This document shows, piece by piece, positions 4,624 through 61,500 of a stretch of 64,000 nucleotides of DNA. The DNA lies in assembly GCA_009746045.1 (NCBI GenBank), contig RPFO01001283.1, positions 18,501-82,500 of the forward strand, in the 5' to 3' direction. Source of the stretch: Mesostigma viride. Lineage: Eukaryota > Streptophyta > Mesostigmatophyceae > Mesostigmatales > Mesostigmataceae. Numbering within the stretch: the first letter of the stretch is position 1; the number at the start of each line of letters is the position of its first letter. The notes beneath the pieces are model-generated. The model was not told the DNA's origin and ran no database searches. It saw only the letters and a program-made list of their open reading frames with translations. The position numbers and the translations under genes were made by a program.

Positions 4624-5196
4624 TGTTACGTCGCGTAACAATTCGTTGTAGTTACGGACGTAAATTAGGTCTTTTGCCTCAGTTGTCCCTAGGTTTACGT
4701 TTAGGCTCCTACCGGGACATTATTGTCTTCGTAACAGTACTGTGGTACATTGGGTGCCGTTGGGCGCCGCGCCGCGTACTTTACTAGTGGTCCTGATCCT
4801 TTGGTAGAATGTAGTGGACCAGCGTGCATCAGTAGATGTAGTGGACCAGCGTGCATCTGTAGGCGAGGGCCATGTCGGCCCGAGCGTGTTGGACCGTTGG
4901 TGACCATTTATGCGTGTTCTACCCCTTGTGTGTGCACTCGGCGTGTGTTAAATGAATTAACACATATAGGCTTGGGTCACGGCAGTGTAGTTGTGTTTCC
5001 TTCCTCTTTTCCTGGAGTAAACGGGTTTTGGTAAATGGTTGTATGGCGTATTATAGTAACACTTACGTTAATGCATTGAGATCAGCTCCGTCACGTTCGT
5101 CTTTCGCCAGAGGTTTGAGTAGAGGAGGCCTGACCAGTATAGGTAGTATCAGGCCCATTAGAGGTAGAGGCGGAGGTAGATACCCGCGGCGTAACA
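4624..5196 (+). repeat. 5' LTR of gypsy element 1
   Basis: 573 bp, TG...CA termini with imperfect 9-bp inverted ends (TGTTACGTC / GGCGTAACA). It contains an internal duplicated 20-nt motif (GTAGTGGACCAGCGTGCATC at about 4811 and 4838). It is preceded by TSD GCACC. Confidence 0.95.
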
Positions 5197-7944: not shown

Positions 7945-8056
7945 GCCTGTCAGCCGGGGGTAACCTGGACAGGTCCTTAGATAGTACCCCAGATAAAATT
8001 TTTGCCTGCCTGTTTTTATAACCTCTGTAGGAGCTGAATCTTCCCTACCACTACGT

Positions 8057-10242: not shown

Positions 10243-10253
10243 TTCCTACTACT

Positions 10254-18253: not shown

Positions 18254-18826
18254 TGTTACGTCGCGTAACAATTCGTTGTAGTTACGGACGTAAATTAGGT
18301 CTTTTGCCTCAGTTGTCCCTAGGTTTACGTTTAGGCTCCTACCGGGACATTATTGTCTTCGTAACAGTACTGTGGTACATTGGGTGCCGTTGGGCGCCGC
18401 GCCGCGTACTTTACTAGTGGTCCTGATCCTTTGGTAGAATGTAGTGGACCAGCGTGCATCAGTAGATGTAGTGGACCAGCGTGCATCTGTAGGCGAGGGC
18501 CATGTCGGCCCGAGCGTGTTGGACCGTTGGTGACCATTTATGCGTGTTCTACCCCTTGTGTGTGCACTCGGCGTGTGTTAAATGAATTAACACATATAGG
18601 CTTGGGTCACGGCAGTGTAGTTGTGTTTCCTTCCTCTTTTCCTGGAGTAAACGGGTTTTGGTAAATGGTTGTATGGCGTATTATAGTAACACTTACGTTA
18701 ATGCATTGAGATCAGCTCCGTCACGTTCGTCTTTCGCCAGAGGTTTGAGTAGAGGAGGCCTGACCAGTATAGGTAGTATCAGGCCCATTAGAGGTAGAGG
18801 CGGAGGTAGATACCCGCGGCGTAACA
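18254..18826 (+). repeat. 3' LTR of gypsy element 1
   Basis: 573 bp, with no difference from the 5' LTR seen by eye at a constant 13,630-bp offset. Followed by TSD GCACC (18827-18831). Confidence 0.95.
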
Positions 18827-36689: not shown

Positions 36690-38111
36690 TTCTATACGCT
36701 TTGGCTAGATCTTTCGCAGTCCCACACTTTAGGGACGCGACACCAGGCGATAGCCAGGTTTAACCCCGCCGTGCTCGCGCTCGTTAAGGATGTCCAAGCC
36801 TGGCTCGAACCCGAGCAGTAAAGCGTGCACGTGCCCGGCGCATGACGTGATCCACGACAATAATGAACAGGTATGGGGACAGGACACAACCTTGCCACAC
36901 CCCGTCCACGGTGAAGGGGGAATGGTGGGGTGGTGCCTTCCGCAGTCTGCACTACTGCCTGTGAGCCCTCATACAGTCGACGAATGGCAGCAATAAACGC
37001 TGGTGGCACCCGATCCAGAGCTAGGATGGCCCAAAGAGCCTCCCAGAGGACCGTGTCAAAGGCCTTGATATAGTCAACAAACATGAAGACCAGCGGCAGA
37101 CTGTCAGGGCAAAGGCGACGCACCTCCTCCATCAACCGGCGCGCGACAAACACAGCCATGACAGTGTTACGACCACGACGGAAAACCATCTGAGACTCAC
37201 CCAGGTGTGGGTCCAGCGCGGCGCGGAGCCGGTGCAGCATCATGCGCATGCAGACCTTCAGCGTGGCGCTCTGGAGGCAGACACCCCTGTAGTTACCGGG
37301 GTCAGCAGCAGAGCCCTTCTTGTACAGCATGCATGACGCGGATGGCCGTCTGCCACTCAGCAGGCGGAGGCTCGTCAGAGAGCAGGATACGGTTGCAGAA
37401 CGCCAGCAGAAGATACCTCACCGCCGGGTCAGGGGTCTTCAGCAGCTCAGCCGAAAGGTGGTCGGCACCGACCGCCGCGTCGTACCGCAGGCGAGCAAGG
37501 GCGCCGTCCAATTCCATCAAAGTGAAGGGGTGGACGACGTCGTCGGTGGCAAGGCAGCCCTCCTGCAAGGCGGGGACTTGGTAGTCCGCGGCCGAGGAGG
37601 GGGGCGCCGGCGGCGGCGGGGGTCCGGCGACCCCGAGACGGGCGGCCGTCTCGGGGTGAAGCGGCGGGGGGGGGGCGCGAGCCCCACCTGTCAAGGAAGC
37701 ATTGTGGGCCAACCAGCGGTCAAGGCTTACCGGCGCGCCGTGCCGTCCCCCGTGTGCTCCACCGGGGTGCGCTGCCGCCGGCCGCCGAGCCGGTCACTCG
37801 AGGTGGTACCACATGTCCTTGCCCTGGTTGCGAGCTTGGCAGGCCTTGGCATCTGCGATGCACTGGGCCGCCTCTGCGTCCTGAGCGTGCTCGTAGGCCT
37901 CCACAAGGGCGGCCTTGAGCACCGGTTTCTGCAGCGGGTCCCGGTTACGCTTGAGGCGGTGCCGGGCGGCCAAGACCTTGGGGTCTGCTGAGATGCCATG
38001 CCCTAGCTTTGTATTCTGATTCTTTTGTATAGCTATGCTGATCTTCCGGCCCCCCCATGCCAGGCCTTTTAGGTATGATACATCATGGTGGTGCAGGTGC
38101 ACTGTGTGCAC
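36690..38111 (-). pseudogene. LINE reverse transcriptase, N-terminal and central fragment
   Basis: Minus strand. From 38111: an uncertain N-terminal stretch (PKVLAARHRLKRNRDPLQK). Then 37712-37302 has FTLMELDGALARLRYDAAVG with ADHLSAELLK and PPPAEWQTA (the RT entry motif region), continuing from 37330 with LYKKGSAADPGNYRGVCLQS, MVFRRGRNTVMAVFVARRLM and FMFVDYIKAFDTVLWEALW (palm Asp in F-V-D-Y-x-K-A-F-D). These are hallmark LINE RT motifs. The YADD-containing part is missing or scrambled before 36690. With the fragment at 33370-34300 in the same orientation, it is probably one LINE disrupted by the LTR insertions between. Confidence 0.8.
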
Positions 38112-38670: not shown

Positions 38671-41600
38671 TTATTTCTTGGCAGCCGCCGTGACGTTGAA
38701 CTTGAAGTAGATGATGTCGCCATCTGCCACCGTGTAGTTCTTCCCTTCCTGATGGTACTTGCCCGCCGCCTGCAAAAGGCACACAACAAAAACCAGGAAA
38801 GTAGTATGGAACGGTGACGTTGCATGGAAAGCGGGAGAGGGATGGGGGGGGGGGGGGGGCGAAGGGTTGAAAACATTGACCTTTGAAAGAAGAGTGCATT
38901 GCCTGACCTTGAGGACGCAACCATCAAGGCACGTAGGCATGCCTAGAAAGCTTTGCCAATCAGCACATCAGGCGGCAGTAGCAGGCAGAAGGCGATGGAT
39001 GACCTGTGTACAATGCGCCAGCTGGCGGTCACTTATACAACGAGGAAGCATTAATAAACTAACGAAGTTACATAGACTCCGTCCTCAGTGGGACAAGGTC
39101 AAAGCAACCACGATGGGTGACATTATATTGTGCATGCGCAATACCCTTGCTTACTACATCATCCGTGAGGCAAATACAGAATATGGAAGGCCGTCAGGTG
39201 CACAAAGACCATACATAAATCCAGCTTCTTCCAGATTTCTGGCCTGCGCTGGTGGTCTCTTTGATACAGAACATGGAAGGGTATCAAGTGCTCAAAGAAA
39301 AAAGTATTACTTCCAAAAAGGGACAAAAGAAAATGAGCGCAACAGGGAGCTAAAAAACCCAAATGTCCCCATGTACAGCCTGTGCACTACTTTACAATAC
39401 TACCTCCGGTGCATTAAAATATCTCAAGAGGTGGTGAACTAAAACATCTCGTTTTCACATACGCTAGAAGATGCGATGCCGTGGTCACAAATATAGGAAT
39501 TTTAAAAAGCCTTTTCCAGGGCAACATGCCTAGAGTTGTAAATCCAAGGCCTTTAAAATGAAATCTGAGTGTGGCTAGCTACAATAAAAGTGCCATAAAA
39601 TCACCCGTTAGGGGGTTGCCTGAGCCTAGGCAGAAAAAACGAAAAAATGGCCGTGCTAAATTAGTTTAAATGAGAAATAGAAACAAGACAAGACGTTTGG
39701 CGTTGGAGTGTGCTGGATATCTAGTTGGGTCTCATCCTACCCATTTTGGGGGCAATTAGCAGGCAATTTAGGCACATAATAATACCATAGTGCACATCTG
39801 CATTTCTTCAGGCAATTTTCAGCACGAGTCTCCATTTGGACCCAAAGCGTCATTTTGGCTCATAACATCTTTACATTAGCAAGTTGCAGCAATACTTCTA
39901 CTGCAGCACTCTTAAACTTGAATACTTGATTAAAAAATTTGGCATCTTTACAGCCTTATTCAAAGGCACTTTGAAGCTGCTGGCATTCATCATGACCGCA
40001 AAATAACTGTGGTACAGTGCCCTTGAACCAAGCCTTCAAAACCAAAATCTTTAAAGCAACTGCTCTACCTGTTTCACTTCCTCATTTCCTTAAAATACTT
40101 TATCATATTTGATAACAAGGCAGACCATCATTTTAACCTGCAGAGATTATGCTGCAGACTGTGGGTAAAAGGCACATATGCTTTCCCGTATGTGCGGTTA
40201 ATGCAGCCGACAAGCCTCCGCTGATTCTCGCTGCCATTTTCACGAGCAATATCTGCTTTCTCGCGTTGCAAATCCTCTGGTAGCTGAGTAATGAGGAAAT
40301 ACCAACCTAACTCGCCAGCTGCTGCGTTTCTAGGTCGATTGAGGCCTCGCCCGTGTGCCTGCTGCAGCCTTGGCTGCTCTCGGGTTGCCGGCACAAGATT
40401 GCGTCACCAATCGTCCGGAATTCTGGTCCATATGCTGCCATTTGTACCCAATTACTTTCAATACCTTGCTGGCAAAAACCCATGTCGTGGAACATCGAAC
40501 AACGCAACAAAAACCGCTCAATAAAATATGACCCCCTGCAGGTCTTTGGTGCGGAAATTAAGCAAGAAATCAGGTACAACCAACCTTAAAAGAAAACATA
40601 GCTACGGCCAGTGTTTTTAGTAAGGGTTTTTGGCACGCGTCAGACGGCTGACACGCCGCCGTTGGCGGCGCGTCGGACGGCTGACACACCGCCGTTGGCG
40701 ACGCGTCAGCCCATAGCAGTTGGGGGCGGGGCCCAGCTAGGGCCTCACTATAAGACGGAACTACCCTCAGGCCTCAAGTAATGTACCGGGGGATGGGGGG
40801 TGGGGCAGTCACATTATAGTTACCCTAAGGGCAACAAAACTTTTTAACAAAATATTTTTTATTATCAAAATGAGCTTGAGATTTAAATGGTAAGTGATTG
40901 GTACTTGATGCATCAAGCTCAAACAAAAGCTAGCACGTCTGGATGTGTATAAAACAAGAGCCCTTAGCTACGGATTATAAGACAAACTGTCTAGCACCTG
41001 GATCCATTGTTGTCAAGACTAAAGACAGGTACCAGCGCTGACTGCACCTCCCGGGGCTTGTGCCTCTAGCCTCACCTAAGCCACTATCAGTCAGTCAGTA
41101 CAGCTCCAACTCATCATCCTCGGTTGACCTTTTCCTCTTGTTCCGCCTTTCAAGTTCCCTCACGGCCTTGGTTACATCGACGAGAGTGGGACTACTGGGT
41201 CCTGCCCCGTTGGCGGTTTGCCTCTTAAAAATATGACGAAATCGCCACGGAATGAAACCTTTTTAGGAATCCGCCTCCTTTCGACCCCATGGCCAGGTGT
41301 GCCCCAAGCCCCAAACATCGCTGAAGATCCGCGAGTCAGGTACAAGGCAATGTAATGCAGAAATACGAAAAAATGTTGCGTAGACTTACGGATAGGCCGC
41401 TGAGGTTGATCGACGAATTTTATTTCCTACCGCCTCGGCATGATACCTAAACCGATGCAACCCGCAGGTTGCAAGAAAAGTAGAAAACGCTCCTACCAAA
41501 TAGCAGCTGCTATTAAAATGCATCCATCGTAAGTTTACGTATGCTTTGCTTACAAAGTATCCGCTAGCGCTGCGACGGCTATCGCCACCTCGGTGGCTGC

Positions 41601-44600
41601 ACCAAATAATTATACTGTCTCGCGTTGGCAAGCCAGGCAGACGGGCCGGCAGGTCTTAGCATACCGGTAATTAAGTCACCGAAAGGTGTGAGGTTCCACA
41701 CGGCCAAGTGCGGCCCACATTTCAGTCAGTCACAATCAGTTTCAGTCAGTGCACGAAAATCTCAAGTACGACTCGGTGGGCCTGGATGGGCTTATACTTA
41801 AAACTATGTACAAAAAAGCGAATAGAAGTTGACGCGGCGAACCTGTGGCCCAGGCACATGACGCGTGAGGCTTGGTGCACGTCAGACGACTGACGCGCAG
41901 CCCAAATTTACGCGTCAGTCGCCTGACCCGCGGCCTAAATTTACGCGTCAGCCGGCTGACGCGCGGGGTAAAATTCCTGACGCGTAAGAGCTGGCGCTTC
42001 AGCCCGCTGACGCATGCGTCACGTTACTAAAAACACTGGCTACGGCCCCCAATACCAAACAAGCTTTCATGCGCAAACGTCCCTCATAATAAACAAAAGC
42101 TTTATTGCCGACGCATTCCAAATAAGTCTAGCGAGCATGAACTCCATGGCCAGTGTACCACTAAATTGGAGTTGTAGTTACTGCTGGTCGCAACGCACTC
42201 ACGTGAATTTCCAGGTCTGGCTGACCTACCCCGAGTATCCGAGATCCGGTACGACCTACTTTTACTGTTCAAACCCTCTCAGCGGATCAAAGCGCCGGAT
42301 TTTTCTTTTGTGTTAATTTACCGTGTGCCCCCCCTACAACGCAACTTTTACACCCCTATTTTTTGGGGGTACTTTTGGAGGTACTCCTGGTTTGTACTGC
42401 TAGTGCTGCCACCCTTTGGGCCCAAAATAGAACTATCCCTACCCTTCCAGCATATCTAGTTTGCAGGACCACACATGCCCTATTTTACATGGAGCCCTTG
42501 TTGCCCCACCATGAAATGTTTTTAAAAAAGAAAAAAAAAGGCTTTTGAGATATTTTAATGCACCGGAGGTAGTATTAGTCTACTATAAGTATGCATCCAT
42601 TTGTGAACCCTAGCCAAGATCTCTGAAAAGTTCGTTCCTTAGATGCATCACTAGCATGGAAAATGGTTACAATAGGCGGGCTGGGGTGATATCAAGATGT
42701 CGAGGATCGTGTAGCAAAACAGTGAGGCATTTTCACGAAGAGCCCGACAAATCAGTACTAACCCATATACCAGCTGGTAGCTGGCTGCTATCATGTTAAG
42801 AGACATTGGGTAAGAAAAATTAGCAAATTTAAAAAATTTGCAACAGGCATGTCCATAATATCTTACCTTCATTTCTGGCCTGTGCTGGTTGTCTCATAAA
42901 TGAGATATTGTCTCATAAATAGGATATCGTCTCATCATTAGGATATTGTCTCATAAATAGGGTATCTCACCTTCACCGCTGAATCACTGCCTTCCTTCAC
43001 CAGGTCTTCGTACTTCATGACCTGAAGGGTAACGACGTGAACCAAGCATGAGAGATCATGGCCGGGCGCAGCAAAACCATGTGAAAAGTCCGAAAACCAA
43101 GCCATGCGTGGAGTGAAGCCACGTGGACAGCCAAAGTTCAGTCTTATCATTAATATTTTATCGACAATTATGTTTTACACATGGCTGTCAAAACATGATG
43201 CAACTCTTTGCAGGTCCACATGCATGTCTCCTACTACCTTCACGTCTAAGAACCCCCTCATAAACATACTTGACCGATCATACCTGACCGATCTAACATG
43301 GGAGTTCATTTCTGGGGCCATATGATGCTTCACTTCCCTAACTAGAAGCCCTCAACCAGACAGATAGGTAAACTAGATGTAAGCATTGCTAATGGTCTAT
43401 GCAATGAGCGTACTCGAATGACCTCTATGCTCACCCCCCAGCGCAGTGGATGTTTGAAAAAAATACGTAACCAAGTGCAGCCGAAGCTTCTTCATGCTGA
43501 ATCTCAGGCAAGTGCAGACGATGCTTCTAACTGCTACCAAACTACAACCAAGCAGCTGGCTGCATACCTAAGCTGGAACTCACGAAGAAGATTTATAGAA
43601 CTGCGACAATAACAATATGATGCTTCTAAATATTGCGAGGCAAAGGCACATGCAGGTTGGATTTGTCACCCGGGCGTGCGCATACCTCCGCACAAATGAA
43701 GCCTCTCTCAAAGTCTGAATGGATGGCTCCCGCAGCCTGGGGCGCCTTGGTCTGTTTCCGGATGGTCCAGCACTTAACCTGAAACCAGCCAGAAACGCCA
43801 ACACATGTTCATTAGCAGATGTTCACAGTTAATCAGTAGGTGGTACAGCTTTGAAACCTGGGAGGCGGCCCCACACACATCAACCCACGTTGTTCACGTT
43901 AAATTAGTAGATGGTTCAGCAATCGACCTGGGAACCGGCCACACACCTCGCCACAAGGTGATTAGAGGAGGCACCCATTGGTCAATAGATGGTCCAGCAT
44001 CTAGCCTCAACCTGCCACACAAATCGCCACGCGGTCCTTACAGGCATTATTAGCTACTCTAAATCATTGCTAATTATTTATTCGTAATTATGATCGCTAT
44101 GATTCCACATTTATTACTCAAGTTATTCAACCCAAAAGGTTGAACACCCTTGAGGTCATAACCACACCGACAAGGTCGCCTTGGGCATTCCCGTTACATT
44201 TGCAAACCCCTTGGCACTAAGTGATTCCGCGGACCTATCAGTATGGCAACCCCAGCAGTACAGCAGCAGCGAAAGCCCGTCGAGGTGGCCATGGCAAGCC
44301 AGTACCACAACTAACACTCACCTCATCCAAGCCGCGCGCAAGCAGATAGAGTATAGCAACTGCAACCTGGCACGTCCTTTTAGCCACGTCGATTTAGGCA
44401 TGTCATCTATACTCGCCTCACTTGCCTCGCACATAGTCATTCTGGCAAGCCACTACTGCCAACAGCGATCACCTCAAAGCTGTACAACAAGCTTTAACTT
44501 TGTAGACAAGACGCCATCCCCCGTGAACGCAGTCAGCTCACCCAGTTGTCGAGGGCTGCACAACACAAGGCGCCCCCCCCCCAACACACTTCTTAGTGCT

Positions 44601-47600
44601 GGCGTCAGTTGCGCTCACCTCGTCGGAGCCGCACGTGAAGAAGTAGATCAGATGGATCGCGGTGTAGCCCGTCTTGATGATCTTGGGCAGCGCGCTGCGA
44701 GGCAGCATGGAGGGGGGGGATATACATGGGATAGATAGGATGTGATGGCTTTAACCCATGGCTTTCAATAGCCTTGTCTTGATGATCTTGGGCAGCGCGC
44801 TGCGAGGCAGCATGGAGGGGGGGGATATTCATGGGTTAGATGGGATGTTAGGCCCATGGCTTTTTTCTTTTCTTTTTTTAAAACCTTGCCTTGATAATCT
44901 TGGGCAGTGCGCGGGAGGGTCGTGGGGGTGGACCGGGGGGGTAAATAAATCAAATAGACTTTTATTATAGAAGACATTCCCACGCCATCTCACCTCATGG
45001 AGAACACTCCAGCATCTATAACGCCCACCTGGTCACCTCGTCCTCCTTGAATTGGGCTTTTCCTCCACACGAGTTACCTAGCTCATGAAGAATACGACAC
45101 TAGGCAAGTAGTCCAGTCACCCACCTCGTCACCTCGTTGTCCTTGCAATACTTGGCCGCCTCCTCCTCGGTCATGTCGGCCAGTTTGGTCTCCAGCACGC
45201 CGCTGAAAGGGATGATTGGGTCCTCTGGGTGGTGCTCCTTGATCCTGGTGGCGTGGTGGGTGGAGCGTGAAGACGTGTTAGTTGGTGCACACGTCACGAG
45301 ACATAAGCGATAAGAGGGGATGAATTCATTACTAATAAATCATAAATGAATGACAAATAAATCATACATTAATGATACTGCTACATAGACAATACATTAA
45401 TAATAAAGAGCAATGGGAGAGGACGATGGGGAGGCGCTTCTTAATCCTGGAGTTGGACACATGCCAAAGAAGAAACGTGGAGGTACAAAGAAGGGTGAGG
45501 AGGTGTCAAGAGAGAAATATACTATTATATCCATTCGGTCAGAGGGATGACGGGGTCCTACAGGTGGTGGTAGCCATGTGGTGGGCATCCACACGGTAGG
45601 CATCAACCCACATGTAGGCAGAACCTACAGTTTGCTAAATGTTTAGCAGGCACTCCACGTGGTCCTTCGTGGCCCTGGTGAACACAGCTAGCCCAGACCC
45701 GACACCCTAACCAAGTGTTTAGTGCACTCACCAGTGCGCAATCTTGGCCAGCCACTTGTTCTTTTTTCGCTTGTAGTCCTCTTCACCCAGGTTGATCTGG
45801 CGGCGGGGAAATAAAAATAGCAAAGCCATGAGGAACAGTATTCGCGAAAAGGGGTTTTGGGAGACCAGTATAAGCCTGAAAAGGGTTAGGAGAATAGCAT
45901 GAGCCTGACAAGGATTTTTGTTCATGTAAATCAAGTGAGGCAACTAGAGCAATTCGATCTTGCACATTCATAAACACATAACTGCCACAAAGAACTACCA
46001 TAATGAACCAAGGTAAATCACCACCGAACATGGCCAGCAGAGCCAGGATGCCTATATTTTTCTGCAAAGTAAAGGAATTGCCGGCAGCACAGTCGGAAAC
46101 AGAGACAGTGACCATGCACCCATCGTGGCACTCAACCCTCAGGCAGCACTCACCCATCGTGGCACTTCAACACAGACAACCATGGGGATGCATAAGGTGC
46201 TTGTGTCGAAAAAAATCAGATTTCCAGGTAAGGTCATGCCTCTATGCATGCGAGGGACCACGGGGCCCCACACTCACGCACCAGGTAAACGCAGGAAGCT
46301 GATGTGCATGCCAAGCGAAGATAAGCAAAGCAAAGCATGGCTACACGCTGCCTTTGATGTTTTCGTGCTGCACAGGCACGCGCCAGGTAAACGGCCGGCT
46401 TCTTGGCCCTCAGCAGCCTGGGAGGTGTTGAGCATCCTCATCACTAGGAAAGGCAGCGCTGAACATGGGACAAAAACATGATCTGGACAAGTATGGCCAG
46501 CACCAGACTAACTTCCCCCCCCTGACTTTGTTCGCCCCTTTCGTCTCAGAGGACTACTCCAGTGCTCACACGACGATGGACCGCCATGCGTCCAGGAATA
46601 GTTGTCTCACTTTATAAATCAACACACTCAGTGCTGTTCACGCACCAGGTAGACGACTGGCTTGGCAGTCAGCAGCTGGAAGGTGTTGAGGACCTCAATC
46701 TCTGCCGCCTTCCAGTCGCCCGACCGGACGTCGTTGCCGGCTTCCAACCACGCCGCCACCTGGCCGCGCCAGGACGCACGCAACACATGCATCCACAAAC
46801 GCAGCACGTGCATGCGCGAACGCATGCCATGCATGCATGAACGCATGCACTCACGCGCGCATGAGTTGTTGACAAGCAATACACTGCATGAGACTTGTGT
46901 TGAGTACACACAGAACCATGATGTTGTTGACAAGCAATACACTGCATTAGACTTGTGTTGAGTACACACAGAACCATGATGTTGTTGACAAGCAATACAC
47001 TGCATTAGACTTGTGTTGAGTACACACAGAACCATGATGTTGTTGACAAGCAATACACTGCATGAGACTTGTGTTGAGTACACACAGAACCACGATGCAA
47101 ATGGATGACGCGGCGTCTCCTTCTGTGACGCGGCGTCTCCTTCTGCGTCTTCTTCATGTTCTTGAAGCGCATGTCCACAAATCATTATCATGACCATAAA
47201 TCATTATCATGACCATAAATCATAGTGACGCCTACTCATGTTATTGTATAGACTAGTACCGTAGTGGCCCTTATATCAGTACGCTTAATTATGTACGAAT
47301 CGCCCTCGTACATGCCCCCAAAAAAACTCCTTCCGGCCTCGTACAACCCAAGATATCTCCTTCACCGGGCTTCAGGTCGTCAATATACATTTTATGAACA
47401 CCCAGAGGGTACACCTGCAGAGGACCCTCAAGTATATACCCTGACAATATACCTACGTACTATAAAAAAAAATCCCAAAAGTCTACGTAAACGTAACAAA
47501 AACTCCAAAAGCTCTTCGTACAAGAATTAAGCGTACACATATAAGGGCCACTACGGTAGTCAGTGAACTTCACATCCAGCTTCTGTATTTCGTTCTTGCC

Positions 47601-50600
47601 AGCGCCAGGAACACTTCCGGCAACACAACCATTACCATTTAGTGACCTCCACTATCCTTACAGTACACGCTGTTCACCTTTACACCCACCTCCAGCTCCA
47701 ATTCTGTGCCACTGTAGATGCCAAGAACACGTTGCAGTGCCAGCAGAAGCAATCAAGAAATGTCAAGGCATCTACACAGCCATGTCACCAATCTACAGCA
47801 AAGGTCACTGTAGCCAACAGTACAACTAGCAAACGTCACACTAGCCGCAAGGATCACCTTCTCCACCATCTCCAGCTCAAACTTCGCGTTCTTGTCCGTG
47901 GGAGCCTTCTTCAGCGTCTTCTTCACGTCCTCGATGCGCGCGTTCACAAACTCAATGTCCTGACCCAACAAGGGACGAAAACCGGAACCGCGCAGAGGTG
48001 CACGAGAACCAAAACCATGCAGACGTGTCAGGGAATGTCACCGAGGGGTTATTAACGGCCAAGTCCACATTCTCAACGAGTGGGTTACGGACGGACGTGT
48101 TCCCACACTCAATGTCCTGCTGAGTGGGAAGCGAGTCCACTCACCAATAGCACGTAGACTGAATCACGTGAGGATAAATCCTCAATGACACAAAAATCGA
48201 ATGGGATGCCTGGGTGCCTATCTGACCTTTAGCCTCTAACCGAAACCATAAGGGAGCCGGGTCAATGACCAAGCCGGGGGCAGAGAACATTCAAGGGCGA
48301 GGGCAACAGGAGGAGGCCGAAGAGGCTGTTACGGCCCAGACCTTTGTATGGGCGTAACAATGCCTTCAATAAATAACTCGAAAGTAATTTGTTATTCGTT
48401 TGGGACTTTCGGTAGCTCGCTTTCATAGTCCGCCGGACTATCGGACTCAATTCGGGACTTATTTGAGAATTTGTCCTAAGTTCGGGACTTTGTGTGTTTA
48501 TTTGGTACTTTGTGTGTTTCGGACCAGTTATTTTGGGCCTAGCCAGAAGTACGAGATCTTCTAGGGGCCGGGCCGGCCCTAGACGTCAGACAGAATCTGT
48601 TGGGGCCTGACGGCAGTCTGAAGTCTCTGGAAGATCGGCGCGCATGTCGGCGCGCCTGCACACCAACTTGCCAGCTTGGTAGCGCAGCTAGGTGAAATTG
48701 GTCTGAGGACGATGGACTCACTCTCTTTGGTTTGATCATTAATGAAACGAGTGTTGACGACTCTCTCAGACCAAGGGGCACTATTCCGGATGTCATTTGC
48801 CTCATGACATGCCGTGTTATATAGCTAGATTAACTAATCATGCTATATCCGGATCGGGATGTAACAGAGGCGTAGGCGACCAAGCCGCGGCAATGAACAT
48901 TCCAGGGCAGGAGCAACAGCAAGTTATTGCTGGCGGTGTTCACAAACTTGCTATGCCCATCAAAAAATGTTGCCATGAATCCGGTAGCCAAAAAAAAGAA
49001 AAAGAAAAAAGAGCTAGCGACGTAATCAAGTAAGGTATGACGAGAGGGGCTTACATGCCAAATGGCATGCTAAACCGAAGCTGGAACATAATCCACGCAC
49101 CAGGAGCTCACTTAGTACATCTAGCACAATTTCCCTATTACTGGCACCACTATCCAGTGAGAGCTTTTTCGCAGTTGGGCGGTAGCTTGGGATGCCTTCG
49201 GATCAGGAGACCCATTTAGCCGCGGAATCAAGCCAGAGGTCCTAGTTTGAATCCCTGTTGGAGCTACTTGAACTTTCGCGTTTTTCGCATCCTGGCGCTC
49301 GGCAGCATTTGGTTTCACTATTTGTCGCTTGCCTTGACGATAATTCACGGAGCCGGGAGCGCAAGAGAATGAAATAGAAGAGAGAGAGAGAATGGCGCAG
49401 AAACAGAAGAACCAAAAATGATGCCGGCGACATAAGGGCACAGCCACATAGGGGGGGGGGCTAACCAGGTATCACCGGGGGGGCATAAAGTGCCTCAACC
49501 CCACCCGCCCACCCACCCACCCACCCACCCACCCACCCACCCACCCACCCACCCACCCACCCACCCACCCACCCACCCACCCACCCACCCACCCACCCAC
49601 CCACCCACCCACCCACCCACCCACCCACCCACCCACCCACCCACCCACCCACCCACCCACCCACCCACCCACCCACCCACCCACCCACCCACCCACCCAC
49701 CCACCCACCCGCCAGTACCACCGCCACAAAAAAGAATAAAAGCACGAGAACGAGATATGACACATCACCTTTGGCATGAGAGGTATGGAATAATAAATAG
49801 AGTCCCATGATGCAATTACATATCAATAATACAAAGAGCTACCAATAATAGAATTCATACGACGAAACGAAAGGAGAGAAGTGCAGTATACGCCCGTGCC
49901 TGTACCTTGGATGGTGAAGCTTTCCTTTGCTTGACAAGCACTACTTTAGCTGCGGCCCAGCCATTGTAAAAGCCTTGTGGTAAAAGGTACAGAAAGGGCA
50001 CTGAGCAGTCATCCTGCTAAGTACGGACGTAATAATATTACGTACATATACTACTATATATAACGTAATAATATTACCGTGGAGCTGAAGCTAAAGGCAG
50101 ATCTAGCTCTACCTTCAGCCGCAGCTCCGCGGTGATGATGCGAAGAAAGGGCTGTACCCGCAGGTCTGCATGCCACGTCGAGAATGTACAGAAAGGGCAT
50201 TGAACAGTCGTTCTGGTAACAATCACTCCCATACCTGGAACAGTCATCCTTCTGGTAACAATCACTCCCATGCCTGGAACAGTCATCCTTCTGGTAACAA
50301 TCACTCCCATACCTGGAACAGTCATCCTTCTGGTAACAATCACTCCCATACCTGGAACAGTCATTCTGGTAACAATCACTCCCATACCTGGAACAGTCAT
50401 CCTTCTGGTAACAATCACTCCCATACCTGGAACAGTCATCCTTCTGGTAACAATCACTCCCATACCTGGAACAGTCATTCTGGTAACAATCACTCCCATA
50501 CCTGGAACAGTCATCCTTCTGGTAACAATCACTCCCATACCTGGAACAGTCATCCTTCTGGTAACAATCACTCCCATACCTGGAACAGTCGTTCTGGTAA

Positions 50601-53600
50601 CAATCACTCGCATACCTGGAACAGTCATCCTTCTGGTAACAATCACTCCCATACCTGGAACAGTCATCCTTCTGGTAACAATCACTCCCATGCCTGGAAC
50701 AGTCATTCTGGTAACAATCACTCCCATACCTGGAACAGTCATCCTTCTGGTAACAATCACTCCCATACCTGGAACAGTCATCCTTCTGGTAACAATCACT
50801 CCCATACCTGGAACAGTCATCCTTCTGGTAACAATCCCTCCCATACCTGGAACAGTCATTCTGGTAACAATCACTCCCATACCTGGAACAGTCATCCTTC
50901 TGGTAACAATCACTCCCATACCTGGAACAGTCATCCTTCTGGTAACAATCACTCACATACCTGGAACAGTCGTCCTTCTGGTAACAATCACTCCCATACC
51001 TGGAACAGTCATCCTTCTGGTAACAATCACTCACATACCTGGAACAGTCATCCTTCTGGTAACAATCACTCCCATGCCTGGAACAGTCATTCTGGTAACA
51101 ATCACTCCCATACCTGGAACAGTCATTCTGGTAACAATCACTCCCATACCTGGAACAGTCATCCTTCTGGTAACAATCACTCCCATGCCTGGAACAGTCA
51201 TTCTGGTAACAATCACTCCCATACCTGGAACAGTCATTCTGGTAACAATCACTCCCATACCTGGAACAGTCGTTCTGGTAACAATCACTCCCATACCTGG
51301 TCCAGTCGTTCTGGTAACAATCACTCCCATACCTGGAACAGTCATCCTTCTGGTAACAATCACTCCCATACCTGGAACAGTCATCCTTCTGGTAACAATC
51401 ACTCCCATGCCTGGAACAGTCATCCTTCTGGTAACAATCACTCCCATGCCTGGAACAGTCATTCTGGTAACAATCACTCCCATACCTGGAACAGTCATTC
51501 TGGTAACAATCACTCCCATACCTGGAACAGTCGTTCTGGTAACAATCACTCCCATACCTGGTCCAGTCGTTCTGGCAACAATCACTCACATACCTGGAAC
51601 AGTAATCCTGGTAACAATCACTCCCATACCTGGAACAGTCATCCTTCTGGTAACAATCACTCCCATACCTGGAACAGTCATTCTGGTAACAATCACTCCC
51701 ATACCTGGAACAGTCATCCTTCTGGTAACAATCACTCCCATACCTGGAACAGTCGTTCTGGTAACAATCACTCCCATACCTGGAACAGTCGTTCTGGTAA
51801 CAATCACTCCCATACCTGGTCCAGTCGTTCTGGCAACAATCACTCACATACCTGGAACAGTAATCCTGGTAACAATCACTCCCATACCTGGTCCAGTCGT
51901 TCTGGCAACAATCACTCACATACCTGGAACAGTCATTCTGGTAACAATCACTCCCATACCTGGTCCAGTCGTTCTGGCAACAATCACTCCCATACCTGGA
52001 ACAGTCATCCTTCTGGTAACAATCACTCCCATACCTGGAACAGTCATCCTTCTGGTAACAATCACTCCCATGCCTGGAACAGTCATCCTTCTGGTAACAA
52101 TCACTCCCATGCCTGGAACAGTCATTCTGGTAACAATCACTCCCATACCTGGAACAGTCGTTCTGGTAACAATCACTCCCATACCTGGAACAGTCATTCT
52201 GGTAACAATCACTCCCATACCCCCAAGGTACCTTTAGTCGCAGCTCCGCGGTGATGATGTCCAGGTCCCTGACAGGGTCGACCACGTCCTCCACGTGGAT
52301 GACGTCAGCGTCATCGAACGCGCCTGCCGCGGGGGAGCATGAAATATAGTCATTCGAGGATAGTAGTCCGAGGGTTGGGGAAGGCGATCGATAAAATGGG
52401 GCCGAAAAGGGGCGCGGGATGGTGGCAAACCGCAAAGAGGGCCGGGGGGGAACAGGTTTTGGGGGATGGAAAGAGAGCGACGGTACAGGGAGGGAAAGAC
52501 AGGGAGAAAGTGGGAGAAAGATCGAGAGAGGAAAGACAGGAAGGGGGTGCAGGGGGGGACAGGAGGGGGAGAGGAGGGGGAGGGGAGAGCGATGTGAAGT
52601 AGGGGAAGCATAGCAGGCGAAGTAGAAAGGAGAAGATGACAGGGAAAGTGGAAAGGAGAAGATGTAAGGTGAAGACAAACGCGAGGAGGGGCTTGAGAGG
52701 GGGGAACAATAGCAGGGGTGGTCAAGCACGAGTTTGGCATTTTGGTTTGATTTGGTTTGAGAACACGTGTGGTCAAGGAAGGATCGCGATGGCTTGTCAA
52801 AGAGAAATGGACCCGGGAAATCGACCTGGGAAAGTGACCTCTAATGGGGGATCGACTTTGTGGATCATATGCCTGGCCACATCCATTGAAAGGTTCAAGG
52901 ACAATGGACCCAGCCTGTAGGTAGCTCTGCGCGACTATATTGAGAGTTGTAAGGACTAGCTAGACAGAGATGCCGATCCTGATTGACATCACTCAGAGTA
53001 GTCCAAACTGCCACCTCGAAGAAAACCCGGATTGCGTGATAGGGAAGGGGCAAACAGCAGTAGCATCATCATACTGGGTACATACTCATGGATGCTATAT
53101 GAATGGCGTGTTTGTTGGAAGGGATCCAGATCAGGGGGACCGACAAAGGGCGATGGGCGGAAGCCTTGCCATAGGATACACGAGAATTCGTCTATCACCA
53201 AGTCATGACTATCTGTTAACTTCATGGTCGACAAAGGAAATGGATAGAGGATGCGAAGTGGAAGCAAACCAAGGGGCAAGGGCGGCAACTAAAGATAATA
53301 TCGTGGTAGTATTCATCGTGTATATAGATAATATCGTGGTAGTATATATAATATCGTGTATATATATAATATCGTGTATATAGATAATATGGTGGTAGTA
53401 TTCATCCATGGGCAGGCCAGAGATCTGGATTATACGTTTTCATTTCATTCAGCACATGATTCATTCTCTTTCCTTGTGGTTAAGGATACGGATCACATGG
53501 TAGATGCCGTCCACCGCACGGATGTGCGACAGGAACGCGTTGCCGAGACCCGCACCCTGCGACGCTCCCTTGACCAGCCCCGCGATGTCCCAGATGTCCA

Positions 53601-56600
53601 GGTAGGGGGGGACCTGGGTGGGGAATGATGCAGGCAAAGAGTAGGACATGTGAATGGCGGACAGAAGCATACGATTGGGGCCCGATAGGATGGCACCTGT
53701 GCCGGGCAAGGGCAAGGGTAGGCACAAAGCGGGTAGGCGATGGGACTATCCAATCTACGGGAACAGCAAACAAGGAAGAAGGGTGCCACGGTAGGGGGCA
53801 CCTGCACCCTGTATTCATCCGTTCTTTCATGCACCCATGCGCCTCCGCTGGGAGCATCACCCAGTAGGGTGTAGTGGGCACCCTGGATGGTGTAGGCAAA
53901 GACACGAGTATGCCGTGGGAATCACTATAGGAGGATTACTTTAGGGGGGCCTATCGCTGTAGGCACAGGCAAGAGCAGACCGTGGGAATCATGAATAGGA
54001 GCACAGGGCCGCATCTAGTAGGAGACGGATCCAGATAGTGGGTATAATGACTAGGAACACAGCGGCGCATTTAGATAGGGAAAGCTCACGCACAAGGCAC
54101 ACGGGGACACGGAGGAATGGGGGAATGGAGGGTGGTCACTACAGGCTATGATGGGGGGGAGATAAGGGGGGTGGTCACTACAGGAGGAATGTGGGAACAG
54201 GGGTGGGAACACAGGCTATGACGGGGGGGAGATAGGGGGGGTGGTCACTACAGGAGGAATGTGGGAACAGGGGTGGGAACACAGGCTATGATGGGGGGGA
54301 GATAGGGGGGGTGGTCACTACAGGAGGAATGTGGGAACAGGGGTGGGAACACAGGCTATGATGGGGGGGAGACAAGGGGGGTGGCCACTACAGGAGGAAT
54401 GTGGGAATAGGGGTGGGAACACAGGCTATGATGGGGGGGAGATAAGGGGGGGGCGCCTGTACGGGGCACGCTGTGGGCAACAGGACCACATGAACAGGAA
54501 AACGAGGCGGACACCAGGAAATTATTTGGTGGTGGGCCAACTAGGTTGTTCAATAGGGGTTACATTGTCACATGGGGGGCCCACCGCCCTCCTTCGGTGG
54601 GTGATGCAGCTGGCAGGCCCATGCTCGTATACCCCTGGAGTGGGACCCCTTCACCGGGCCAACATAAGGCACGGATGCAGGGGATACTTAACATTAACAG
54701 TGATAATAACATTCATAATAATACGATACAACAGAGCCAACATGAGGGATGGGTGTGGTTGATACTTGCTTGCACCAATCATGCACTCAAGTACGGCACT
54801 CGTTGGGTGATAATGCTTGCATGGACATGCACACATGCGTGGCAGTTTCTGGATGGCGTTGCCTGCGCTCGCGAACACCGTGCATCCTTCGGTACCTCAT
54901 TGCTCTTGAACATTCTCTATTACTTAGAAATTCTCTATTACTTACTGCGCCCTAGTTGGCAGCTTCATGACGAGTACCGCACTAGAAGCATGTAATTTGA
55001 TTGACTCAAATATAGTAAGACCTACTGCGCTCTGTGGGTGGTGATGCTCTCCCTACAACCCCTCACCACACATGATGGATGGTGATGCTCTCTATACAAC
55101 CCTCCACGGCGTTCTTTGGGCGGTGATGCTCTTTGTACAACCCCTCACCGCGCTCTTTGGGTGGTAATGCTCCACCAGCCAGTTGAAGCGGTCGTCCGGC
55201 AGGTTCACCCGCGCCTCGTTCGGGTTGATGGTGCAGAACGGAAAGTTCTGGGGTGGAAGGGGGGAGAGAACAACAATTCCGCGTTGGGTGCGTGCATTGC
55301 CAACATGATGGGTGCATGTCAGACGTTATGGGTGCATGGCAGACGTTATGGGTGCATGGCAGACAATTATGGGAGCATTGCAGACATTACGGGTGCATCG
55401 CCGACATTAGGGATGGCGGGGTGCAAGTATCGCCCACATTGAGTTCGAGAAACACGTTCCCATTGGGAGCAGGGTTGAGGGTTCACAACCGGAGGATCTG
55501 CAATGAAAGAGGCGTTGAACCAAGTCCAAAAGCCCAGAGACAAAGAAAGAAAGAACGGCACATCCACATTATTTTCTCCACGTTAGGTGACTGAGCTACC
55601 ATCAATATGGGAGGGGAGGCCCAACCATAAGTCCATAACCAAGAATGTTGCTATATCATGGGGTGGAGGGTGCAAATGGTGCCCCTGCTGGGCATTTATA
55701 TTATCAATATATTGTCTCCTTGATATAATGGGTGTGAGTGTGCCCACCTTAAGCGGCACGTGCCACCCTGCTGGGTGGCTAGACAACGAACCCTAAACCC
55801 TAAGGGTTGATGCACCAAAATCCGTAAGTTGCTTGCGGGTGTTGTTGCAAGTCTTCCCCAACAGATTTGGAATTGCAAATCTGCACTGGGTGGGTGGATG
55901 GGGATGCAAGTGGGTGGCATGACAGGACGACCATGGCTATGCAGACACAACAACAGCTAGACAAAAGTGTTAACACGATACATACGCAATACATAGCTTT
56001 TGGTCCATTAGAGTTCCTTCCCACCAAGAGAAACACGTGTACTACCGGTAAGTGTGCTAGGCTTTGCCCAATGACTAGGCCATTGTGGTGTCCAATAGTT
56101 TCTTGGTATGAAAGAGGATGGCCACATAGTGAAACTGCAGTTTGTGTACTACTAGGATGTACGATGCACGCTGTCTCAGAAACTGCAAGCACAACCACCA
56201 TTGATTTTACTTCCACGCCACAATTGCCGTTCAAACTTCCAGGAGGCCAATGCGACCGGCCACACACCCAGAACATATGAAGTGAGACAACTATCTGTTG
56301 ATCAACCAAATACAGCTATAAGGATCAACACAGTGGCTATTTCTGGCATCCGTATAGTAACCCAAGGTGACAACATAACATTGCTGGCATCCGTACAGTG
56401 ACCACAAGCTAAACAACAGAGCATCGCTGGCAGGCAAATACATGTAGAAGTCAAGCTTCCCGACTCCTGGGTCCACTAGGTCGACTTCCCACTCCCGTCT
56501 AGGCCATGACATCTCACTTGGCCGATGGCACCTGGCAATGCCAGCATGCTCTTTGTTCTTAGATCAAACATTCATTTTCCCTGAAGAAAATTTACGTTAG

Positions 56601-57128
56601 GGGCGATGTAGCATAAATGGATCTACCACAGCGAAGGTTGGGCACAATAACAAAACCGACGCGGTACTAGGATGGTATCTGCATGGTATAAACGTTATCT
56701 ACGCACGCTCGCGTAACTTCCTAGACAGCTCCTAGACGATACCGTTATATGTAGATAGTTTATGGCTTAGTTATCCAAGCATATCGACAGAAACGAGGTT
56801 GCTAAACCGTCCGACAGAAACGAGGTTGTTGAAAGCAAATCTTAGTAAAAGGCTTAATTTGGTACCCGTCCCCAAGTGCGTTTAGCCAAGTGGGCGCCAT
56901 TACCAAGCCTCCCGCTGCTAGTTACGTCGCATGGGCGACCTAGAGCATGCTTTCCACAAACTGCAGTGGTGTCATACTCACTTCAGCAGGCACGGAAACC
57001 TTTCCCAGGGTGTTAAACAACGTGCTCTTGCCGACATTAGGGAGGCCGACAATGCCCATCTTCAAATTGGACGAGAAGCGTCCCAGCAAGGGCTTCTCAG
57101 CAGCGGGCTCAGCCTTCTTTGGCGCCAT
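38671..57128 (-). CDS. OLA1: Obg-like ATPase 1 (OLA1/YchF family), complete 12-exon gene, 393 aa
   Basis: Minus-strand exons: 57128-56982, 55247-55149, 53613-53490, 52323-52232, 47959-47858, 46759-46646, 45796-45732, 45244-45125, 44694-44619, 43778-43686, 43021-42971, 38769-38671 (stop TAA). All junctions are GT-AG and keep frame; 1,182 nt give 393 aa, the usual OLA1 length. Motifs: P-loop GLPNVGKS (28-35), NFPFCTI switch (50-56), DIAGLV (91-96), and NLGE (228-231) in place of NKxD, the change that makes this TRAFAC GTPase-fold protein prefer ATP. A C-terminal TGS domain follows (about 305-390; [28 protein letters not shown]). It is a cytosolic, ribosome-associated ATPase linked to translation and stress control. 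Introns average over 1.5 kb and carry transposons, satellites and decayed exon-edge copies. Exon 3's donor GTATCCTTAA resembles the U12 type. Confidence 0.95.
40609..42038. mobile_element. hAT-type DNA transposon 4 in OLA1 intron 11
   Basis: 8-bp TSD GCTACGGC (40601-40608, 42039-42046) and 15-bp perfect TIR CAGTGTTTTTAGTAA (40609-40623; complement 42024-42038). Sub-terminal regions carry many copies of GCGTCAG...CTGACGCGC (40635-40712 left, 41880-42020 right), a different motif from the CGTATTATACG type of the other hAT elements, so a separate hAT family. A minus-strand stretch (about 41240-41095) reads like protein ([20 protein letters not shown], then [14 protein letters not shown] and stop), possibly a transposase exon remnant. 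Confidence 0.95.
42856..42968. repeat. Short tandem repeat at the exon 11 donor side
   Basis: Four units of a TCTCATAAATAGGATATTG-like sequence (42890-42966), preceded at 42856-42878 by a decayed copy of the exon 11 donor (minus strand AATGAAG then GTAAGATAT; the real one is GGTGAAG then GTGAGATAC). Confidence 0.7.
43838..44030. repeat. Three decayed copies of the OLA1 exon 10 acceptor end
   Basis: The exon 10 start (plus-strand GGATGGTCCAGCACTTAACC) recurs as TAGATGGTCCAGCATCTAGCC (43985-44005), TAGATGGTTCAGCAATCGACC (43908-43928) and TAGGTGGTACAGCTTTGAAACC (43838-43859), each followed by related CGGCCACACAC / CTGCCACACAA sequence. All lie upstream of exon 10 in transcription direction. Confidence 0.7.
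44764..44925. repeat. Two decayed copies of the OLA1 exon 9 acceptor end
   Basis: The exon 9 start with its acceptor (plus-strand GTCTTGATGATCTTGGGCAG then CGCGCTGCGAGGCAGC) is repeated at 44775-44814 almost perfectly and at 44887-44920 more diverged (CCTTGATAATCTTGGGCAG then TGCGCGGGAGG). Both lie upstream of the real exon 9 (44694-44619); neither continues into the rest of the exon. Confidence 0.85.
46865..47094. repeat. 58-bp tandem repeat, 4 copies, in OLA1 intron 5
   Basis: GTTGTTGACAAGCAATACAC starts units at 46865, 46923, 46981 and 47039. The copies are nearly identical. Confidence 0.9.
47259..47556. mobile_element. Tc1/mariner-type MITE in OLA1 intron 5
   Basis: 298 bp. Inverted ends CCGTAGTGGCCCTTATAT, extending inward to about 40 bp with a few mismatches (47259-47300; complement 47515-47556), flanked by TA on both sides (47257-47258, 47557-47558). 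No transposase. It lies between two decayed copies of OLA1 exon 5 edges. Confidence 0.8.
48327..48866. mobile_element. Solo LTR (540 bp) in OLA1 intron 4
   Basis: TGTTACGGCC...GGGATGTAACA ends with a perfect 5-bp TSD GAGGC (48322-48326, 48867-48871). Related to the split LTR at 34536-36480. Flanking DNA on the two sides is itself similar (ACCAAGCCG ... GAACATTC ... GGGC...GCAACAG), so the insertion fell in or beside an older local duplication. Confidence 0.9.
49160..49270. ncRNA. tRNA-like / SINE-head sequence with pol III B-box (tentative)
   Basis: AGTTGGGCGGTAGCTTGGG (about 49175-49193) could serve as an A box. GTCCTAGTTTGAATCCC at about 49239-49255 fits a B box (GGTTCGAATCC type). Box spacing of about 65 bp and weak stem potential suggest a degenerate long-variable-arm tRNA or a tRNA-derived SINE head. 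No clean cloverleaf could be drawn by eye. Confidence 0.3.
49500..49710. repeat. (CCCA)n microsatellite in OLA1 intron 4
   Basis: About 52 nearly perfect CCCA units; in OLA1 transcript sense this is (GGGT)n. Overlapping open frames of Gly-Gly-Trp-Val or His-Pro-Pro-Thr are products of the repeat. Confidence 0.95.
50113..52231. repeat. 36/39-bp minisatellite starting at the OLA1 exon 4 donor
   Basis: About 55 units of GTAACAATCACTCCCATACC + TGGAACAGTC(AT/GT) + (CCTT)CTG between about 50200 and 52220, in 36- and 39-bp variants. The array begins about 10 bp inside intron 4 (donor at 52231). At its far end (50113-50139) lies a second copy of the last 27 nt of exon 4 with a donor-like GT. Each minus-strand unit contains CCAG then GTATGG, a donor-like sequence. 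Unit lengths divisible by three keep several frames open on both strands. Confidence 0.95.
54144..54455. repeat. 70-bp tandem repeat, about 4.5 copies, in OLA1 intron 2
   Basis: AGGCTATGATGGGGGGGAGA recurs every 70 bp (from 54145), with GGTGGTCACTACAGGAGGAA in each unit. G-rich on the plus strand. Confidence 0.9.
55021..55170. repeat. 41-bp repeats: decayed copies of the OLA1 exon 2 donor end
   Basis: Plus-strand GTGATGCTCT-type starts at 55041, 55082 and 55123, then the real exon 2 (GTAATGCTCC at 55164). Each unit keeps versions of the exon end plus donor: real CACCCAAAGAGCGCG then GTGAGGGGTTGTA; copies CGCCCAAAGAACGCC then GTGGAGGGTTGTA, and so on. The copies lie downstream of the true donor in intron 2. 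Confidence 0.85.
55313..55420. repeat. Roughly 22-bp tandem repeat (GGGTGCATGGCAGACGTTAT)
   Basis: Five degenerate units in OLA1 intron 1 next to exon 2's acceptor side. Confidence 0.8.
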
Positions 57129-58521: not shown

Positions 58522-61500
58522 ATGGAGTTATCACGGCGAGCTCTTGCCATGGCGATGAGGGCGTTGTTGGTAATCGTAGCGAGCTGCTGCATGATGAAAA
58601 CCTGTTCCGCGTCGTCCGTCCTCAGCGTGCATCACTCGGCTAAATACGGGCCGCAGGCGCCGAACTGGCAAACCGTCGTGGCGGTACCGCAGTTTGACCC
58701 AAACCTGGGCAATTTGATCTCAGTGACCGTCAGCATTTTGGGCGTCGTCATCGGGGATGCAAAGTAAGTAAGTGGCGGGTGCTCTCTTGTCATCGTTGAT
58801 GTCAGCCATGTCGGCAATCTTGTCCGCAGCGTATCTGCCATACTGACTGCACCCAGACACCCAGGGAGTCACGATGTGAGGCATGTCCCATCCAAGTGGA
58901 AGTATCAGTAAAACAAAATTTCAAGTCTCCACACAGCCGCACGGACGCCTGGGAGCTCGCAGCACAGCGATAGACCGGCATTTGCGAGTGCAGCACCATG
59001 ATGAGGAACCCTGCTGGAGTACACCGGACTGTACCAGCTCACAGCACAACACAGCACAGCACAGCATAGACCGGCATTTGCGAGTGCAGCACCATGATGA
59101 GTAACTCTTCTGGAGTACAGCGGACAGCACTAGCCTTGGAGAAAGTAGATAATTTACAGTTAATATAAGATAGTTAATAGTTTTGAGATCGTGTGGTTGA
59201 ACGTATAGCTGTAATATAATGTACATGTATTTGTGTTATATGATTGTGTCATAGCTGGCGCTGGTGGGAGCCTCTCCCTCTCCCTCCCTCCCTCCCTCCC
59301 TCCCTCCCTCCCTCCCTCCCTCCCTCCCTCCCTCCCTCCCTCCTCCCTCCCTCCCTCCCTCCCTCCCTCCCTCCCTCCCTCCTCCCTCCTCCCTCCTCCC
59401 TCCCTCCTCCTCCCTCCCTCCCTCCCTCCCTCCCTCCTCCCTCCCTCCCTCCCTCCCTCCCTCCTCCCTCCTCCCTCCCTCCTCCCTCCCTCCCTCCCTC
59501 CCTCCCTCCCTCCCTCCTCCCTCCCTCCCTCCCTCCCTCCTCCCTCCCTCCCTCCTCCCTCCCTCCCTCCCTCCCTCCCTCCCTCCTCCCTCCTCCCTCC
59601 CTCCCTCCCCCTCCCTCCCTCCCTCCCTCCCTCCCTCCCTCCCTCCCTCCCTCCCTCCCTCCCTCCCTCCCTCCCTCCTCCCTCCCTCCCTCCCTCCCTC
59701 CCTCCCTCCCTCCCTCCCTCCCTCCCTCCCTCCCTCCCTCCCTCCCTCCCTCCCTCCCTCCCTCCCTCCCTCCCTCCTCCCTCCCTCCCTCCCTCCCTCC
59801 CTCCTCCCTCCCTCCCTCTCCCTCCCTCCGTCAGACCACCCCCACCTCCTCTGACGGACTTCTATACGGCAATCGACAGCTCTGGTCAAGCCCGATTCAG
59901 CAGAGCATCGAAATTGCCCAACGTACGGGATTTCGTACCAGATTCCGGATGCGCGGCTGGGCACTGCGCGCCAGCAGTCTCGTATGTGGGCCTTATTCAT
60001 AGTCTTACTAGTACAGTGTCTTATTAGAGGTGCCGTAGTTGTCTGATGTCTCACTTACCAGTAGAATAGCGGCGGGTACTCCCCTAGTCCGGAGTTGGCC
60101 AAAAGTAGCCTGACGCCTACTGATTGGGCCATACCCGGGTTAAGTTACGGTCGCCGCCCAAACTTTGGCGTGGTAACTTAACGCGGGAACGTAACCTTAA
60201 TAATCGTAACTTAATGCGGTAATGACTGTACAACAACCTGGTCGAGAAACCCGCTTTCACCCACAACTGACAATGCTGGGTCACTGTATGCGGTCACTCT
60301 GTTTATACGGGGTTATCCCCGTTGTGATGACCACCAGGTATGAGAACCTGGTCGAGACATCCTTCATGCCCGTCTTAGTTTTGAATGGTCACGATGCGGT
60401 CACTCTGTGGCCCCCAACATATGACAGCATGGGCGATAGACCGGTCTACCCTATAAAAAAAGCACATTTTGGCGAATTAATCAATTTTTTGGGTTGGGAG
60501 TATCGGATTTCGATCCTTGCAGTTCAAATAATGACCATTCCTGGTATGTGGAGTTCAGATTCTGAGTGCCCTCATCGAGATCTATCGATTGAGCTAATGT
60601 AACTTGAGATTAGACCCCCCAACGGCCCACTTGGATCTTGACTTTGGATCATTATTGGCTAAGGGGCCAGCTTACAGCCATTTTTGCCTGTCTTGTAGGC
60701 CGAGTATCGCTCAACTGAAAACGGACTTTCCGGTATCTAAGGTATGATCCAGGATCCTATCGCGGAGATCTGTCGATTGCGCTACTCAAAATAAAAATCG
60801 AACTTGAGACCCAGTCTACGATGGTACACCGGTCTATCGCCCATGCTTTCATGTGACGCAGTCACGCGCTTTTGATTGATTTATGCCCCCCCCCCCCCTC
60901 CCAGATACGAGAACCTGGTCGAAAAGTCCGCCATTACCCACATCGACCTCTCCTGCACGCTCAGCGTGCGCTACCCCCGCGCTGTGGACGCGGGTAATGC
61001 CTCCACCCGCACCGTGGTGGTCTCCCCCGTCGCCGAGCGCGTCGACGTGAGCACGGCCAGGGACCCTGCCGACCCCCTGGGTGAGGATGCGTCGCACACG
61101 TTCCTGGGCCTTAGGGGTGAGGCGACGCACCGCGAGGTGCTGACGGCGGAGGCGGACGGGCTTGCGGTTCTGGCGCCGTTTGTGGGTCTGCACACGGCCG
61201 ACTTTGTGGTGAGGGCAGGTGTAGACAGGATGGGATGCTTGCCGGAGCTTGTTGATGTGTCTGCTCCCTGGGCCTGCACACGGCCGACATTGTAGAGGTA
61301 AGGAAAGGGAGGTGTGCCTGGTGCGGGGGGGGGGTGTAGGGGGGGTAGGAGGGGTTCTTATAATGTTTCTTTGGACTGGTTCTATATGGCCGAGTGTGGA
61401 TCTTCACACGGCCAATTCTTGGTGCGCGATGAGCCGGGAGGGGGGATGTGGGGGGGAGGGTGGAAGGAGCTTGCCTCATGCCTGTTGAGCTGGGTGGGTG

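What the first reader, a model, noticed from the sequence alone, without database searches (positions are those of the whole stretch)
42856..55170. OLA1 exon edges are surrounded by decayed copies of themselves, including their splice sites
At least eight of the twelve exons (2, 4, 5, 6, 8, 9, 10, 11) have one to three fading copies of one exon edge plus splice site in the adjoining intron. Donor-side copies: exon 2 (55021-55130), 4 (50113-50139), 5 (47561-47600 and 47671-47706), 6 (46381-46438 and 46271-46300), 11 (42856-42878). Acceptor-side copies: 5 (48097-48120), 8 (45538-45592), 9 (44775-44814, 44887-44920), 10 (43838-44030). A copy of the 5' part of exon 5 is also at 47140-47195. This looks like repeated short tandem duplication focused on exon-intron junctions, enlarging introns and leaving 'ghost' splice sites. 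Some minisatellites (exon 4) appear to have grown from such duplications. I know of no described mechanism that targets junctions this regularly.
Basis: partly seen in the sequence, partly recalled or inferred. Interest (0 to 1): 0.8.

Follow-up and report, generated by a model that had tools for sequence, protein, structure and literature searches.

The report
Decayed duplicate exon edges in introns
In a gene of the green alga Mesostigma viride, introns beside many exons hold worn-out extra copies of the exon's own edge and splice site, apparently left by repeated small tandem duplications of a kind already described in amphioxus; that the duplications aim at splice junctions is not shown.

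Summary
The gene is OLA1 of Mesostigma viride; my 12-exon model gives a protein identical to the annotated Mv06738. I found four more. Scored uniformly, 11 of 22 OLA1 junctions and 2 of 6 in the neighbouring gene have a copy in their own adjoining intron; matched intron windows predict 3.9 of 28 (p=1e-4). Matches are direct, not inverted (12 against 1 of 28). Mismatches concentrate at third codon positions (27/136 against 25/273, p=0.004): the exon is held by selection while the copy decays.

Best reading: short local tandem duplications straddled junctions, splicing kept the authentic sites, and the inner copies rotted into intron. Amphioxus "mirages" (PMC3087553) are the same kind of thing, so "no described mechanism" is wrong on the phenomenon; its cause is unknown there too. 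Targeting is unproven: the 3-4-fold excess exceeds my uniform model, but rests on two genes, one chosen for the pattern, and slower decay of exon-anchored pairs explains part of it. The genome-wide test could not be run.

The parts
38671..57128 (-). OLA1 gene, 12 coding exons (57128-56982, 55247-55149, 53613-53490, 52323-52232, 47959-47858, 46759-46646, 45796-45732, 45244-45125, 44694-44619, 43778-43686, 43021-42971, 38769-38671)
   Evidence: protein identical to Mv06738
55027..55172 (-). 41-bp tandem array spanning the exon 2 donor (3.6 copies)
54793..54817 (-). second, more distant copy of the exon 2 donor edge
   Evidence: p=0.007
55472..55527 (-). copy of the exon 2 acceptor edge
50113..50140 (-). 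copy of the exon 4 donor edge, 26/28 identical
50211..52221 (-). 39-bp minisatellite between exon 4 and its copy
48096..48119 (-). copy of the exon 5 acceptor edge
47674..47704 (-). copy of the exon 5 donor edge
47116..47195 (-). copy of the 5' part of exon 5, in the downstream intron, offset 770
   Evidence: score 70
46377..46445 (-). copy of the exon 6 donor edge
46274..46291 (-). second, short copy of the exon 6 donor edge
   Evidence: p=0.017; exon side alone p=0.10
45536..45592 (-). copy of the exon 8 head (acceptor side)
45420..45455 (-). possible second exon 8 acceptor copy
   Evidence: p=0.023; exon side alone p=0.08
45024..45052 (-). copy of the exon 8 donor edge
44775..44821 (-). copy of the exon 9 acceptor edge, offset 105
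44887..44931 (-). older copy of the exon 9 acceptor edge, offset 217, AG lost
44317..44350 (-). copy of the exon 9 donor edge
43838..44044 (-). three tandem copies of the exon 10 acceptor edge, spaced 70-79 bp
58522..63691 (+). neighbouring gene Mv06739, exons 58522-58763, 60905-61208, 62356-62461, 63456-63691 (last one and the start uncertain)
60229..60271 (+). copy of the exon 2 head of the neighbouring gene
60334..60367 (+). second copy of the exon 2 acceptor edge of the neighbouring gene
61269..61315 (+). copy of the exon 2 donor edge of the neighbouring gene
61378..61448 (+). second copy of the exon 2 donor edge of the neighbouring gene

Best explanation
The ghost edges are remnants of short local direct (tandem) duplications whose unit straddled a splice junction; most copies now lie 40-300 bp from the original. 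After each duplication the mRNA stayed intact because splicing kept the site next to the body of the exon, so the inner copy, with its duplicated splice site, became intron and decayed while selection held the exon. Repeated rounds lengthened the introns and left one to three copies of different ages. Shown here: the copies, their direct orientation, that each edge matches its own intron best, the one-sided decay (codon-position pattern), contiguous tandem geometry for about half, and an annotated protein that uses only the authentic sites. Inferred: the tandem origin of the other half, the order of events, that transcripts ignore the ghost sites, and the slippage or break-repair step that makes the duplications. 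No machinery aimed at junctions is needed for the copies to exist; whether junctions are hit more often than introns remains open.
For: Own-intron copies at 12 of 28 junctions, rank 1 of 27 against flanks of other introns; 13 of 28 with arrays shortened. Score 28 or more: direct 12, inverted 1, reversed 0 of 28. Contiguous units at exon 2 donor (41 bp x 3.6), exon 9 acceptor (105 and 112 bp steps) and exon 10 acceptor (70-79 bp steps); intron side also repeated (p at most 0.05, one of 20 expected by chance) in 10 of 20 ghosts. Mismatches by codon position 13/136, 12/137, 27/136, Fisher p=0.004 for third against first plus second. All 14 OLA1 ghost sites examined would, if used, shift the frame or bring an in-frame stop, or both. 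Short intron-intron duplications are common in the same genes (36 pairs). Same phenomenon described in amphioxus (PMC3087553, passages).
Against: 10 of 20 ghosts show no recognisable intron-side similarity, and 4 of 20 do not reach p=0.05 on the exon side alone, so tandem geometry is unproven for many. The exon 5 head copy lies 770 bp away on the downstream side and its similarity does not run through the exon 5 donor. Junction copies are 3.4-4.5 times commoner than intron windows, while a uniform duplication model predicts about parity (1.0); the codon-calibrated age of about 0.15 substitutions per site is too young for decay asymmetry alone to explain that.
Confidence: 0.8

Rival explanations
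1. Junction-targeted duplication: the same tandem duplications, but something about splice junctions (for example transcription- or splicing-linked breaks, C-rich tracts, or chromatin at exon borders) makes them start or end there more often than elsewhere. This is a rival about the excess, not about the copies.
For: 13 of 28 junctions against a matched expectation of 3.75-3.85, p=1e-4; windows with a local copy are commonest within 150 bp of exons (23% against 0-17.5% in bins farther out); uniform-rate simulation predicts a ratio near 1.0 against 3.4-4.5 seen.
Against: Two genes only; OLA1 was picked because it showed the pattern; the second gene alone gives 2 of 6 (p=0.17). If the intron rate is doubled to allow for one-sided loss, p rises to 0.002-0.011. 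Ghosts near exons may also be shielded from large deletions, since deletions running into the exon are removed (inference). No motif or mechanism was shown.
Confidence: 0.25
2. Detection and ascertainment bias: duplications fall uniformly; exon-anchored pairs stay recognisable longer because the exon hardly mutates, and this gene was noticed because it is extreme.
For: Third codon positions carry about twice the mismatches of the others, showing one-sided decay; in simulation, for events older than 0.2 substitutions per site the junction/intron ratio rises to 4.0; estimated ages of exon-edge pairs (0.11-0.39) exceed those of intron pairs (0-0.22).
Against: Under a constant rate the predicted ratio is 1.0, and at the codon-based age of about 0.15 it is only 0.6-1.0.
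Confidence: 0.45
3. Templated insertions during break repair copied nearby exon sequence into introns.
For: 10 of 20 copies lack a recognisable intron side and some lie hundreds of bases away.
Against: Such insertions should often be inverted; 1 of 28 junction queries has an inverted match at threshold (score 29) against 12 direct. Over all 824 exon windows: direct 51, inverted 5, reversed control 10.
Confidence: 0.08
4. The ghosts are functional decoy or alternative splice sites kept by selection.
For: GT or AG is present at 16 of 20 ghost junctions.
Against: I set those 20 positions by hand, partly on the GT or AG itself, so the count is inflated; the ghosts otherwise decay; use of any of the 14 examined would break the reading frame; the annotated protein uses none.
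Confidence: 0.07
5. Chance similarity of splice-site consensus and C-rich tracts.
Against: Twelve junction queries match their own intron better than any flank of other introns, which contain splice sites too.
Confidence: 0.02

Closest known systems
[quoted passage not shown]
   Same: Tandem copies span the boundary, at 5' or 3' ends of exons; units of tens to about 160 bp; many copies keep AG/GT; the regular gene product is retained.
   Different: Described there in cephalochordates, with length variation between haplotypes; here in a streptophyte alga, mostly older and decayed, at 11 of 22 junctions of one gene.
Boundary-crossing tandem duplication that made a new intron in a potato RdRp gene (PMC4974935, abstract and section 5 seen)
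   Same: Tandem duplication crossing an intron-exon boundary and carrying its splice signals.
   Different: There a new intron and a piece of exon arose; here the copies stayed inside the existing intron.
Tandem genomic duplication model of intron gain (Rogers; Gao and Lynch; Hellsten: seen only as cited in PMC3443670 and PMC3087553)
   Same: Internal gene duplications that contain splice sites.
   Different: No intron gain is shown in OLA1; the process lengthens introns.
Introners (PMC9860276, one passage and the start of the abstract seen)
   Same: Sequence-driven change of introns.
   Different: Introners are elements that insert copies into many genes; here the copies match their own intron best.

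Membership tests
mirage | Tandem repeat unit spans an exon-intron boundary | tested here: met
   Clear for exon 2 donor, exon 9 and 10 acceptors; intron side recognisable in 10 of 20 ghosts overall, so met for part of the set
mirage | Both 5' and 3' boundaries can be affected | tested here: met
   Donor side of exons 2, 4, 5, 6, 8, 9 and acceptor side of 2, 5, 8, 9, 10 in OLA1; both sides of exon 2 in the second gene
mirage | Many copies keep AG/GT | tested here: met
   16 of 20; positions set by hand, so inflated
mirage | Regular mRNA splicing is not disturbed | not testable with these tools
   No RNA data; the annotated protein uses only authentic sites
mirage | Length instability between haplotypes or somatic cells | not testable with these tools
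   One sequence only
mirage | Occurs in cephalochordates (taxonomic, not mechanistic) | tested here: not met
   Mesostigma viride: a parallel case, not the same lineage trait
Intron gain by tandem duplication | A new intron created by the duplication | not tested
   No gene structures of relatives were available
Introner | Similar sequence in introns of many genes | tested here: inconclusive
   Within the two genes, 12 of 28 queries match their own intron best; the rest of the genome could not be searched
Templated repair insertion | Copies in both orientations | tested here: not met
   12 direct against 1 inverted of 28

The most novel reading that the evidence does not exclude
In Mesostigma, tandem duplication is truly biased to splice junctions, through a transcription- or splicing-linked break process that also acts in amphioxus, and it is a main source of intron lengthening, so that intron ends throughout the genome are stratified records of past exon edges.
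Probability: 0.2. Interest if true: 0.85.

Novelty: new member of a known kind. Interest (0 to 1): 0.5.

Why it matters
It extends boundary-spanning tandem duplication from amphioxus and a single potato case to one of the earliest-branching streptophyte algae, at high density in one gene. Each ghost next to a conserved exon is a datable duplication with a nearly unmutated reference, which would let one measure the rate and junction bias of short tandem duplication, intron growth, and the loss of duplicated splice sites across a whole genome.

Tried and rejected
Rejected: the exon 11 donor copy and 47561-47600; the spurious 12-nt seventh piece of my first gene model. Weak and not counted: exon 7 donor and exon 3 acceptor. 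Of the 17 exon-edge pairs, three are doubtful and I do not lean on them: 53674-53604 (10 exon bases only), 52252 to 49183, and 52259 to 50140, whose alignment runs through the shortened array so that its age is not usable (the exon 4 copy itself is solid). Some of the 36 intron pairs, such as those at offsets of 9-10 bp, look like shifted low-complexity sequence rather than duplications. Self-BLAST gave few pairs and was replaced by a banded Smith-Waterman scan. One search listed trivial self matches of the query's own flank, which I ignored, and part of its output was cut. Masking every TRF array removes the kind of event under study, so I use the shortened-array version; both are reported. 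Chance, introners and templated insertion were considered and disfavoured. Rfam gave no match. Pfam gave context: of 10 proteins scanned, 6 had matches and 4 none, among them the neighbour's protein.

Literature: eight paper searches, seen as listings, and passages of the Mesostigma genome paper ('splic' occurs 0 times in its main text) showed me no report of boundary duplications in Mesostigma. The original mirage paper and Gao and Lynch are not held and were seen only as cited. The second Mesostigma genome paper, which I recall, was not looked up.
Full report
What the gene is. Joining 12 exons (with a wrongly included 12-nt piece removed; checked) gives a 393-residue protein identical to Mesvir1 Mv06738 of Mesostigma viride, with a YchF C-terminal and a GTPase domain. 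The next gene, on the plus strand, is Mv06739 (98% identity over 67% of my query); both ends differ between my model and the annotation. The published genome has long introns, averaging 1,142 bp, with repeats making up 30.1% of intron space (PMC6947507, passages).

Noticed in passing
52324-53489: OLA1 intron 3 begins GTATCCTTAACC, close to the U12-type donor consensus (consensus recalled, not from a call); no convincing branch site identified by eye (sequence).
   Followed up: partly
39396-42576: A 3.2-kb insert in OLA1 intron 11 with 35-nt terminal inverted repeats, 97% complementary: probably a DNA transposon.
   Followed up: partly
50054-52840: The 39-bp array downstream of exon 4 has no stop in the exon 4 frame, so a 928-residue open frame runs through exon 4, the array and the ghost, the ghost being out of its coding frame.
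   Followed up: no
6962-11858: Retrotransposon with gag, protease, reverse transcriptase, RNase H and integrase domains in successive reading frames; Ty3/gypsy type by domain order, which is recalled.
   Followed up: partly
36695-37417: Reverse transcriptase fragment on the minus strand (RVT_1), perhaps LINE-like.
   Followed up: no
4804-4862 and 18434-18492: The same 27-bp tandem repeat, with the same consensus, occurs twice 13.6 kb apart, perhaps in the two long terminal repeats of one element.
   Followed up: no
62461-63691: The annotated protein of Mv06739 ends in VCRLV, whereas a histidine-rich last exon at 63456-63691 is also open; the 3' end of this gene model is uncertain.
   Followed up: partly
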